Source: a candidate division WOR-3 bacterium
GTDB taxonomy: Bacteria > SDB-A
Length of the DNA: 11,003 bases
NCBI GenBank assembly: GCA_016926475.1
Contig: JAFGON010000028.1
Coordinates: 1 to 11,003 of the forward strand
Reading direction: 5' to 3'
Positions 1 through 1,188 of this stretch are shown in pieces. Within the stretch, counting starts at the first letter, position 1. Every line of letters starts with the position of its first letter. The position numbers were made by a program, and so were the translations under genes. Under the pieces are notes generated by a model. The model had not been told where the DNA came from. It saw only the letters and a program-made list of their open reading frames with translations, and ran no database searches.

Positions 1-16
1 AATTTCTACCACGAAG

Positions 17-45
17 TTATAAAATTTGTGATACAAATTTTATAA
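17..45. repeat. Hairpin, 13-bp arms
   Basis: The arms TTATAAAATTTGT (17-29) and ACAAATTTTATAA (33-45) are exact reverse complements around a 3-base loop. A CCACGAAG core at 9-16 lies directly to the left. This makes it a variable hairpin of the same family as those further right, in the inverted orientation. The left end of this module is probably cut by the window edge. Confidence 0.75.
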
Positions 46-71: not shown

Positions 72-182
72 ACTTCGTGAAGGAAAATTGTATTCAATTT
101 TCCCTTCGTGGAGGTGTAAAGCAGAGTTTTCCACCCTTCGTGGTTGATATCTTTTTTATCTTTTATTTTCAATTTATTCAAA
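72..182 (+). repeat. Hairpin module, forward orientation, left copy
   Basis: Three TTCGTG cores begin at 74, 105 and 137. Between the first two lies the hairpin GGAAAATTG/CAATTTTCC (82-103, 9-bp arms, 4-base loop). Between the second and third is an imperfect hairpin (113-135, GGTGTAAA against TTTTCCACC). A GTTGATATC plus T-rich spacer follows, matching the spacer in the right-hand tandem copies. The right end is ill-defined because the spacer fades into ordinary AT-rich sequence. Confidence 0.75.
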
Positions 183-200
183 GACCAAATACAATTATTA

Positions 201-285
201 CCACGAAGGCTGGCTTATTTGCATATGGCAAATAAGCCAGCTACACGAAGGAGTAAATCATAAATGATTTACTCTACACGAAGTT
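201..285 (-). repeat. Hairpin module, inverted orientation
   Basis: Three CACGAA cores (reverse of TTCGTG) start at 202, 244 and 277. Between them are two perfect hairpins. One has 14-bp arms, GCTGGCTTATTTGC/GCAAATAAGCCAGC (209-241, loop ATATG). The other has 11-bp arms, GAGTAAATCAT/ATGATTTACTC (251-274, loop AA). It is the mirror image of the module starting at 721, so the nuclease-like gene between them is bracketed symmetrically. Confidence 0.8.
274..285. repeat. Left terminal inverted repeat of GxxExxY cassette
   Basis: CTACACGAAGTT here is the exact reverse complement of AACTTCGTGTAG at 721-732 on the other side of the GxxExxY gene. It is made of the innermost core of the inverted module plus two extra bases. 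The two copies delimit a segment of about 460 bp holding a single gene. Confidence 0.75.
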
Positions 286-312: not shown

Positions 313-684
313 ATGATTTTTGACGAGTTATCAAATAAAGTTATTAATTGTGCTATCGAAGTTCATAAAAATTTAGGTCCTGGATTATTAGAATCAGCTT
401 ATGAACAATGTATGTCTTTTGAATTAAATCAAAGGGGTATTCCTTTTAAAATTCAATACACATTACCAATAGAATATAAAAAAATAAAAATTGATTGTGG
501 TTACAGAATTGATATTTTAGTTGACGATAAAATAATCATCGAATTAAAAAGTGTAGATAAAATATTATCAATTCACAAAGCTCAACTTTTAACATATATG
601 AAACTTGCAAAAATAAATATTGGATTACTTATTAATTTCAATGTGAGTAAAATAAAAGATGGCATTATAAGATTTGTAATTTAG
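313..684 (+). CDS. GxxExxY family protein (PD-(D/E)xK nuclease-like)
   Basis: This 123-residue protein carries the defining GxxExxY motif (G24, E27, Y30, following the usual HKNLGPG stretch). A PD-(D/E)xK-like core follows: D67 in YRIDILV, then E77 and K79 in IELKS. A conserved HKAQLLTYM segment lies at 88-96. The length is that of a complete family member. Family function is not established; the fold suggests a metal-dependent nuclease, but activity is inference. The ATG at 313 has a weak AAGAG site at 302-306. The gene stands alone, is much more AT-rich than the genes from 1233 onward, and is bracketed by inverted hairpin modules. This suggests horizontal acquisition or a mobile cassette. 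The nearest gene, fprA, converges on it from the right. Confidence 0.88.
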   Translation: MIFDELSNKVINCAIEVHKNLGPGLLESAYEQCMSFELNQRGIPFKIQYTLPIEYKKIKIDCGYRIDILVDDKIIIELKSVDKILSIHKAQLLTYMKLAKINIGLLINFNVSKIKDGIIRFVI

Positions 685-720: not shown

Positions 721-732
721 AACTTCGTGTAG
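721..732. repeat. Right terminal inverted repeat of GxxExxY cassette
   Basis: AACTTCGTGTAG is the exact reverse complement of 274-285. It forms the first core of the right-hand tandem array and begins 36 bp after the stop codon of the GxxExxY gene. Confidence 0.75.
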
Positions 733-842
733 GACAAATCAATTTTGATTTGTCCCTTCGTGCAGGTGGGAAGCTATGCTCCCCACCCTTCGTAGTTGAT
801 ATTCTTTTCTTTTATTTCTCTTAGACTTTTTTCTTATCCATC
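721..842 (+). repeat. Tandem hairpin module A
   Basis: Cores start at 724, 757 and 789 (the last is TTCGTA). Hairpin 1 is GGACAAATCA/TGATTTGTCC (732-755, loop ATTT). Hairpin 2 is GGTGGGAAGC/GCTCCCCACC (765-787, loop TAT), with one A-C mismatch that would be a G-U pair in the other-strand transcript. A T-rich spacer beginning GTTGATATTC fills the rest. This is the first of four copies with a period of 120-123 bp. Confidence 0.85.
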
Positions 843-963
843 AACTTTCGTGTAGGACAAATGTAATCATTTGTCCCTTCGTGCAGGTGGGAAGCTATGC
901 TTCCCACCCTTCGTGGTTAATATTCTTTTCTTTTATTTCTCATAGACTATTTTCTTATCCATT
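843..963 (+). repeat. Tandem hairpin module B
   Basis: Cores start at 847, 878 and 910. Hairpin 1 is GGACAAATG/CATTTGTCC (855-876, loop TAAT). Hairpin 2 is the perfect GGTGGGAAGC/GCTTCCCACC (886-908, loop TAT). The spacer closely matches module A. Compared with A, hairpin 1 has changed on both arms together, keeping the pairing. Confidence 0.85.
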
Positions 964-1083
964 AACCTTCGTGTAGGACAAATGTAATCATTTGTCCCTT
1001 CGTGTAGAAAAAATGTTTACATTTTTTCCTTCGTAGTTGATATTCTTTTCTTTAATTTCTCATAGATTTATATCTTATCTATT
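964..1083 (+). repeat. Tandem hairpin module C
   Basis: Cores start at 968, 999 and 1030 (the last is TTCGTA). Hairpin 1 is identical to that of module B (976-997). Hairpin 2 is unrelated in sequence: GAAAAAATGT/ACATTTTTTC (1007-1028, loop TT). So a whole hairpin has been swapped while cores and spacer are retained. Confidence 0.85.
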
Positions 1084-1188
1084 AACCTTCGTGTAGATGA
1101 ATTGCTTGCAATTCATCCTTAGTGCAGAAAAAATGTTCACATTTTTTCCTTCGTGGTGGATATTCATTTTATTTTTCTCTTATCTTTT
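1084..1188 (+). repeat. Tandem hairpin module D
   Basis: Cores start at 1088, 1119 (mutated to TTAGTG) and 1150. Hairpin 1 is new: GATGAATTGC/GCAATTCATC (1096-1117, loop TT). Hairpin 2 (1127-1148) has the same arms as in module C with loop TC. The spacer is shorter and more diverged than in A to C. Confidence 0.85.

What the first reader, a model, noticed from the sequence alone, without database searches (positions are those of the whole stretch)
721..1188. Array of constant cores separated by interchangeable hairpins
Four tandem modules share a TTCGTG core in triplicate and a T-rich spacer, yet the hairpins between cores differ: GGACAAATCA, GGACAAATG and GATGAATTGC in slot 1; GGTGGGAAGC and GAAAAAATGT in slot 2. 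Both arms always change together, so pairing is retained while sequence turns over. This is the reverse of a CRISPR layout: short constant joints and variable palindromes. It suggests either selection on structure with rapid stem exchange, or hairpin cassettes inserted at core sites. I know of no named repeat class with this arrangement.
Basis: seen in the sequence. Interest (0 to 1): 0.78.

Follow-up and report, generated by a model that had tools for sequence, protein, structure and literature searches.

The report
Inverted-repeat element with swappable hairpins
A family of repeated DNA elements in an uncultured bacterial genus keeps its short joints fixed while the hairpins between them are swapped and rewritten on both sides at once; in this window one copy surrounds a small nuclease-like gene, a pairing also seen in other bacteria, which hints at an undescribed kind of mobile DNA.

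Summary
721-1188 holds four 120-121 bp modules, each three CTTCGTG-type cores with a palindrome at both joints. Unbiased pattern searches find the same layout at about 27 contig places in the window's genome and two congeners, with 74 distinct inserts, nearly all palindromic; chance matches elsewhere are not.

The array is not free-standing. It is the tandemly multiplied right end (RE) of an inverted-repeat element, left end (LE) - interior - RE. LE cores are the reverse complement of RE cores, so complete copies are predicted to fold into a tree with hairpins at the joints. Here the interior carries a GxxExxY (PD-(D/E)XK nuclease-like) gene. In other phyla, GxxExxY genes are flanked by plain, hairpin-less core repeats in the same convergent layout (49/154 flanks versus 10/773 control windows).

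Hairpins are interchangeable: one identical hairpin occupies slot 2 here and slot 1 elsewhere, and orthologous sites carry different module numbers and hairpins. An unrelated genome has hairpins at the joints of CTCTGTG cores.

Most likely mechanism: module recombination plus arm-to-arm template-switch correction, in a MITE-like element possibly moved by GxxExxY. Exchange is shown; template switching, nuclease role and mobility are inferred. No named family matched.

The parts
1..43 (-). Left end (LE) of a first element, cut by the contig start: one core (CCACGAAG, 9-16) and the interior hairpin ATAAAATTTG-TGATA-CAAATTTTAT (19-43), followed by a second palindrome AAAGAAATATTTCTTT (44-59)
   Evidence: same interior hairpin in G000:C49, G001:C10, C19, G002:C12
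73..142 (+). Right end (RE) of the first element: three cores (73, 104, 136), hairpins 82-103 and 113-135
202..283 (-). LE of the second element: cores 277-283, 244-250, 202-208 on the minus strand; hairpins 251-274 (GAGTAAATCATTTATGATTTACTC) and 209-241 (GCTGGCTTATTTG..CAAATAAGCCAGC)
313..684 (+). GxxExxY gene, 123 aa, PD-(D/E)XK nuclease superfamily, single copy in the genome, sitting between LE and RE
   Evidence: PF13366 149 bits, TIGR04256 152.7 bits, single match in genome
723..794 (+). RE module 1: cores 723-729, 756-762, 788-794 (TTCGTA); hairpins 732-755 (GGACAAATCA) and 765-787 (GGTGGGAAGC, one A.C mismatch)
846..915 (+). RE module 2: cores 846, 877, 909; hairpins 855-876 (GGACAAATG) and 886-908 (GGTGGGAAGC)
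967..1035 (+). RE module 3: cores 967, 998, 1029 (TTCGTA); hairpins 976-997 (GGACAAATG) and 1007-1028 (GAAAAAATGT)
1087..1155 (+). RE module 4: cores 1087, 1118 (TTAGTG), 1149; hairpins 1096-1117 (GATGAATTGC) and 1127-1148 (GAAAAAATGT)
795..845 (+). T-rich outer flank of RE that becomes the spacer between tandem modules (GTTGATATTCTTTTC..; further copies 916-966, 1036-1086, 1156-1188)
   Evidence: the same RE outer flank GTTGATATCTTTT at G000:C81 and in G001, G002

Best explanation
The array is the fourfold-duplicated right end of a dispersed, intergenic, MITE-like element. The basic element has two ends built of three 7-nt cores about 2 nt apart (LE: ACCACGAAG nn CACGAAG nn CACGAAG; RE: CTTCGTG nn CTTCGTG nn CTTCGTGGT) around an interior that is either a short hairpin-rich stretch or, as here, a GxxExxY nuclease-like gene. 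In this genus each joint can also carry a hairpin, starting after the 2-nt linker and usually ending at the next core. As a single strand the LE cores would pair with the RE cores, giving a stem with hairpin side arms at two successive junctions; folding the hairpins away restores the plain 9-nt core spacing. SHOWN from sequence: anatomy, dispersal over three related genomes, whole-hairpin exchange between slots and copies, module gain or loss at an orthologous site, and association of GxxExxY with the plain form of the ends in many phyla. INFERRED: stems turn over because (a) recombination between near-identical modules moves hairpins as units and (b) template switching copies one arm onto the other, so new mutations appear on both sides; and the element is, or was, mobile DNA whose folded ends are recognised by GxxExxY or another nuclease.
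For: Catalogue in G000-G002: 82 slots, 74 distinct inserts, 5' linker of 2 nt in 55 of 70 scored, 3' linker of 0 nt in 47 of 70, 91% of arm positions paired. Covariation in 17 aligned RE hairpins: 98.7% of cells paired against 80.4% shuffled, score 0.544 against 0.187, 0/500 shuffles. Whole-element DNA folds: z -6.8 to -15.5 in eight copies, outer nine LE bases fully paired with RE in six. Exchange: GAAAAAATGTTTACATTTTTTC is in slot 2 at window 1007-1028 but slot 1 at G000:C81 and G001:C61; GGTGGGAAGC hairpins are combined with four different slot-1 hairpins. Empty slot beside a filled one: G000:C65, CTTCGTG-ta-hairpin-gg-CTTCGTG-tc-CTTCGTG. Orthologous sites: G001:C19 has about 500 bp of tandem modules where G002:C135 has one stripped element and G000:C68 a third layout, with the interior hairpin repeated at the junctions; the LE-outer hairpin differs between G001:C73 and G002:C100; the last RE hairpin differs between the window and G002:C122. 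DNA rather than RNA level: mismatches GT+TG 12 against AC+CA 9, no wobble excess, and many A-T to T-A flips. GxxExxY: core tandems within 300 nt in 49 of 154 flanks against 10 of 773 control windows, Fisher p about 8e-32, orientation convergent 21:5 and 22:7, cores CACGAAG, CACAGAG, CACGGAG or CACAAAG depending on host. The template-switch mechanism and its ability to create and maintain stems are published (PMC8794818).
Against: G001 and G002 have the elements but no GxxExxY gene, so it is not needed to keep them and may be only a passenger. No target-site duplication or clean empty site was found; the orthologous sites differ by recombination-like module changes rather than a simple insertion. 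Template switching was not observed directly, and several near-identical hairpins differ on one side only (64 one-sided against 184 two-sided base-pair differences among close pairs, which are not independent), so ordinary compensatory substitution under selection remains possible. The window's own RE modules lack a matching set of LE modules, so only part of the array can form the tree. All genomes are draft assemblies and several arrays lie at contig ends.
Confidence: 0.55

Rival explanations
1. REP/REPIN-type palindromes moved by a RAYT (Y1 HUH) transposase: each hairpin with its G-N-A-G foot is a mobile REP.
For: The hairpin foot reads GTAG, GCAG or GAAG in most slots (TAG 31, AAG 19, CAG 15 of 82). 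Each of the three congeneric genomes and G003 has exactly one Y1_Tnp gene of about 300 aa.
Against: GTAG itself is in only 31/82, while published GTAG families keep it in over 90% of members of most families and leave it unpaired (PMC3733652); here the last G usually pairs. No core-hairpin arrays were seen in the several kb fetched around the Y1_Tnp genes, except a single array about 4 kb away in G001, and the genes of G000 and G002 appear to have lost the HUH histidines (SFQ and SFH instead of HFH).
Confidence: 0.08
2. A structured non-coding RNA or mRNA element: hairpins are kept paired by selection on the transcript, ordinary compensatory evolution, no mobility now.
For: Strong covariation, very stable folds, intergenic location with few divergent promoters nearby (tandem 13, convergent 5, divergent 2).
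Against: No G-U excess, frequent transversional pair flips, whole-hairpin swaps between slots, no Rfam match, highly variable module number.
Confidence: 0.2
3. Transcription terminators or mRNA 3' stabilisers multiplied by tandem duplication.
For: Located at gene 3' ends in many cases.
Against: The terminator scan finds none of the array hairpins (one match, at 64-86, in the first element); hairpins are followed by CTTCGTG, not a U tract.
Confidence: 0.07
4. Assembly or amplification artefact producing chimeric palindromes.
For: Draft metagenome-type contigs, several arrays at contig ends.
Against: The same families recur in three separate assemblies and inside long contigs (e.g. G001:C19, 71 kb), with fixed linker lengths; a similar slot hairpin is in a 2.78 Mb contig of an unrelated genome.
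Confidence: 0.02

Closest known systems
GTAG-tagged REP palindromes / REPINs / BIMEs (RAYT-associated)
   Same: Dispersed intergenic palindromes, dimers and tandem clusters, complementary stem changes between families, G-N-A-G-like foot
   Different: Here the constant part is a 7-nt core triplet outside the hairpin, GTAG is not conserved, stems rather than feet are variable within one genome, and no RAYT is linked
MITEs (miniature inverted-repeat transposable elements)
   Same: Short AT-rich element with terminal inverted repeats, gene-less copies beside a copy with a nuclease-like gene
   Different: Terminal repeats are triple 7-mers with hairpin side arms; no target-site duplication shown; GxxExxY is not a known transposase
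Mitochondrial double-hairpin / repetitive hairpin-forming elements (fungi, sponges; PMC2800124)
   Same: Two neighbouring hairpins with a constant linker, multiple-hairpin tandem forms, complementary substitutions in stems
   Different: Bacterial chromosome, three fixed cores, paired left and right ends, associated gene; a resemblance only
Template-switch / quasipalindrome mutation (PMC8794818)
   Same: A mutational process that keeps both arms of a stem matched while sequence changes
   Different: A process, not a repeat family; it does not explain cores, slots or the two-ended layout
CRISPR arrays
   Same: Alternation of constant and variable units
   Different: Variable units are self-complementary, constant units are not repeats with spacers from outside, no cas genes in the window

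Membership tests
GTAG REP / RAYT-mobilised palindrome | GTAG tetranucleotide at one foot in most copies | tested here: not met
   31 of 82 slots; criterion from PMC3733652
GTAG REP / RAYT-mobilised palindrome | Linked active RAYT gene flanked by the repeats | tested here: not met
   Single Y1_Tnp per genome, not flanked by arrays, HUH lost in G000 and G002
MITE | Terminal inverted repeats | tested here: met
   LE and RE core triplets are reverse complements and pair in folds
MITE | Target-site duplication and an element-free allele | tested here: inconclusive
   Three orthologous layouts at one locus, all with remnants, none empty
MITE | Related autonomous element sharing the ends and encoding the transposase | tested here: inconclusive
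   GxxExxY lies between such ends in the window and many phyla, but its activity is unknown and G001/G002 lack it
GxxExxY (TIGR04256 / PF13366) | Score above the curated cut-off | tested here: met
   152.7 bits (cut-off 35) and 149.4 bits (cut-off 22)
Rfam structured RNA | Match to a curated family | tested here: not met
   0 matches at gathering threshold
CRISPR | Non-palindromic, unique spacers between near-identical repeats | tested here: not met
   Inserts are palindromes and recur
Mitochondrial double-hairpin element | Common descent with fungal or sponge elements | not tested
   Resemblance in layout only

The most novel reading that the evidence does not exclude
GxxExxY proteins are the nucleases of an undescribed, phylum-spanning class of mobile element whose ends are triple-core inverted repeats recognised as folded DNA, and the joint hairpins are swappable side arms added to this structure; gene-less copies are its non-autonomous derivatives.
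Probability: 0.2. Interest if true: 0.85.

Novelty: new variant of a known kind. Interest (0 to 1): 0.62.

Why it matters
It gives a natural test case for how DNA palindromes stay perfect while their sequence changes: tens of related hairpins in fixed slots, in three genomes, with swaps, empty slots and intermediates. It also ties the widespread but functionally unknown GxxExxY family to a specific, two-ended repeat structure across many phyla, which makes a nuclease-substrate hypothesis directly testable.

Tried and rejected
RAYT-driven REP model: checked foot motif and Y1_Tnp genes, rejected. 23S rRNA intervening-sequence protein (PF05635) as an alternative interior gene: one hit in G003, no core repeats seen beside it, and one sub-threshold hit in G000. 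Rfam, tRNA and terminator scans: nothing in the array. Hairpin inserts near the 78 GxxExxY loci of other phyla: none found. Viral contigs: the pattern matches are chance, used as a control. Literature searches for the core sequences, GxxExxY, PDDEXK_3 and related terms found no description of these repeats; the library lacks most subscription papers, so absence of a name is not proven.

Full report
OBSERVATION. The window is the whole of contig C28 of a 2.15 Mb draft genome. At 721-1188 there are four modules with a period of 121, 120 and 120 bp. Each module is core - 2 nt - hairpin - core - 2 nt - hairpin - core - GTTGATATTC..., followed by a T-rich spacer. Nine of twelve cores are exact TTCGTG. 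One hairpin arm (765-787) carries a single uncompensated mismatch, so 'always change together' is nearly but not strictly true.

EXTENT. Two more arrays of the same kind lie upstream, at 73-142 (+) and 202-283 (-), with a gene at 313-684 between the minus-strand array and the finding. The gene encodes a 123-aa GxxExxY protein of the PD-(D/E)XK superfamily, with a weak sequence resemblance to Cas4 nucleases, no relative of solved structure by sequence, and a single copy in the genome.

GENUS-WIDE FAMILY. A pattern with no palindrome built in (CTTCGTGYAG, 14-44 nt, CTTCGTG) hits 11, 13 and 8 times in the window's genome and two congeners, and at most once in each of 95 other genomes. All genus inserts are palindromic by eye (a few imperfect), and the outside ones are not. 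In 123 chance matches from viral contigs no insert has a comparable stem (best score 5). A relaxed search yields 82 slots at 27 contig places and 74 distinct inserts; this set was filtered for having a stem. The hairpin nearly always starts 2 nt after the core and ends 0-2 nt before the next one, and 688 of 757 arm positions are Watson-Crick pairs.

TWO ENDS. Copies come as a left end (outer flank GTAGAAATTGTATTTGG, longer hairpins) and a right end (outer flank GTTGATATCTTTTC, shorter hairpins) in inverted orientation. The interior between them is about 55-60 nt and itself contains the hairpin ATAAAATTTG...CAAATTTTAT. The LE cores are the reverse complement of the RE cores. In DNA and RNA folds the cores of the two ends pair and the hairpins project at the joints; the clearest case is G001:C10, where all three core pairs and four side hairpins form. 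DNA fold z-scores are -6.8 to -15.5 for eight copies, and the outer nine bases pair fully in six of them. In the window the second element has LE at 202-283, the gene in the interior, and RE at 723 onward, with RE repeated four times. The finding is therefore a tandem multiplication of one end, not a whole system.

EXCHANGE AND TURNOVER. One identical hairpin (GAAAAAATGTTTACATTTTTTC) occupies slot 2 in the window and slot 1 at G000:C81 and G001:C61; the GGTGGGAAGC hairpin is combined with four different partners. G000:C65 has one filled and one empty joint. At an orthologous intergenic site G001 has about 500 bp of tandem modules, G002 one stripped element and G000 a third layout; the interior hairpin is repeated at the junctions, which fits gain or loss by recombination between repeats. 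Other orthologous sites show different hairpins (G001:C73 and G002:C100; window and G002:C122). Within one hairpin family, 17 aligned members show 98.7% pairing against 80.4% in shuffles and a covariation score of 0.544 against 0.187, with changes such as A-T to T-A.

WHY BOTH ARMS CHANGE. Mismatches show no G.U-type excess (GT+TG 12, AC+CA 9; split by end 9:6 and 2:2). Small numbers, but this gives no sign of selection on RNA. Swapping whole hairpins explains abrupt changes. For gradual two-sided changes, template switching during replication, which can create and maintain stems (PMC8794818), needs no selection at all. Ordinary compensatory evolution is not excluded: one-sided intermediates exist.

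THE PLAIN FORM. In 78 GxxExxY loci from other genomes, core tandems of the form CACRRAG-nn-CACRRAG lie within 300 nt upstream in 23 of 78 and downstream in 26 of 76, against 10 of 773 control windows from the same contigs (Fisher p about 8e-32), mostly convergent (21:5 and 22:7). The core differs by host: CACGAAG, CACAGAG, CACGGAG, CACAAAG. In the same family as the window, G003's GxxExxY gene is flanked by TCTGTG-type core triplets. None of the 78 loci has hairpins at the joints. Gene-less inverted pairs occur beside gene-bearing ones (L014, L015). G001 and G002 have the elements without the gene.

BEYOND THE GENUS. In 386 genomes, palindromic inserts between CTTCGTG cores were seen only in this genus (judged by eye on the listed matches). 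With the core CTCTGTG, an unrelated genome (G246) has about 37 matches, and seven fetched sites carry hairpins such as GGCGTC..GACGCC, GGTGTC..GACACC and GCGGTC..GACCGC at a joint. G042 has a left end with a hairpin (CCTCGGCC..GGCCGAAGG) and a plain right end. Hairpins at core joints have therefore probably arisen more than once.

KNOWN KINDS. The element shares terminal inverted repeats with MITEs, but target-site duplication and an empty allele were not shown. It fails the tests for RAYT-linked GTAG REPs: GTAG in 31 of 82, Y1_Tnp not linked and degenerate in two genomes. It resembles mitochondrial double-hairpin elements in layout only. No paper in the held library names these repeats. I therefore file it as a new variant of a known kind (composite palindromic, MITE-like repeat), with the possibility that GxxExxY defines a new mobile-element class left open.

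Noticed in passing
window 313-684 and loci L013-L090: GxxExxY genes across many phyla are flanked by convergent triple-core repeats whose core sequence differs by host; the function of the family is unknown.
   Followed up: partly
L321-L327 (genome G246, contig C1): An unrelated genome has about 37 CTCTGTG-core matches, with hairpins at one joint in the seven sites read; stem variants differ by compensated changes.
   Followed up: partly
L160:478-514, L171, L172, L175, L177: A second, hairpin-less repeat family with ATTCGCG/ATTCGTG cores at about 10-nt spacing (ATTCGCGTTCATTCGTGTCAATTCGTGGTT) coexists in the same genus.
   Followed up: no
L162:1853-2737, L183:2014-2880: Y1_Tnp (RAYT-like) genes that appear to have lost the HUH histidines (SFQ, SFH) while the G001 copy keeps HFH.
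   Followed up: no
G000:C5, C65, C88; G001:C32, C58, C61, C73, C76; G002:C100, C122, C133: Many arrays lie at contig ends, suggesting the repeats break assemblies and that their true number is underestimated.
   Followed up: no
window 313-684: Weak similarity of the GxxExxY protein to Cas4 nucleases (PADLOC Cas4 models, E 1.6e-4).
   Followed up: no
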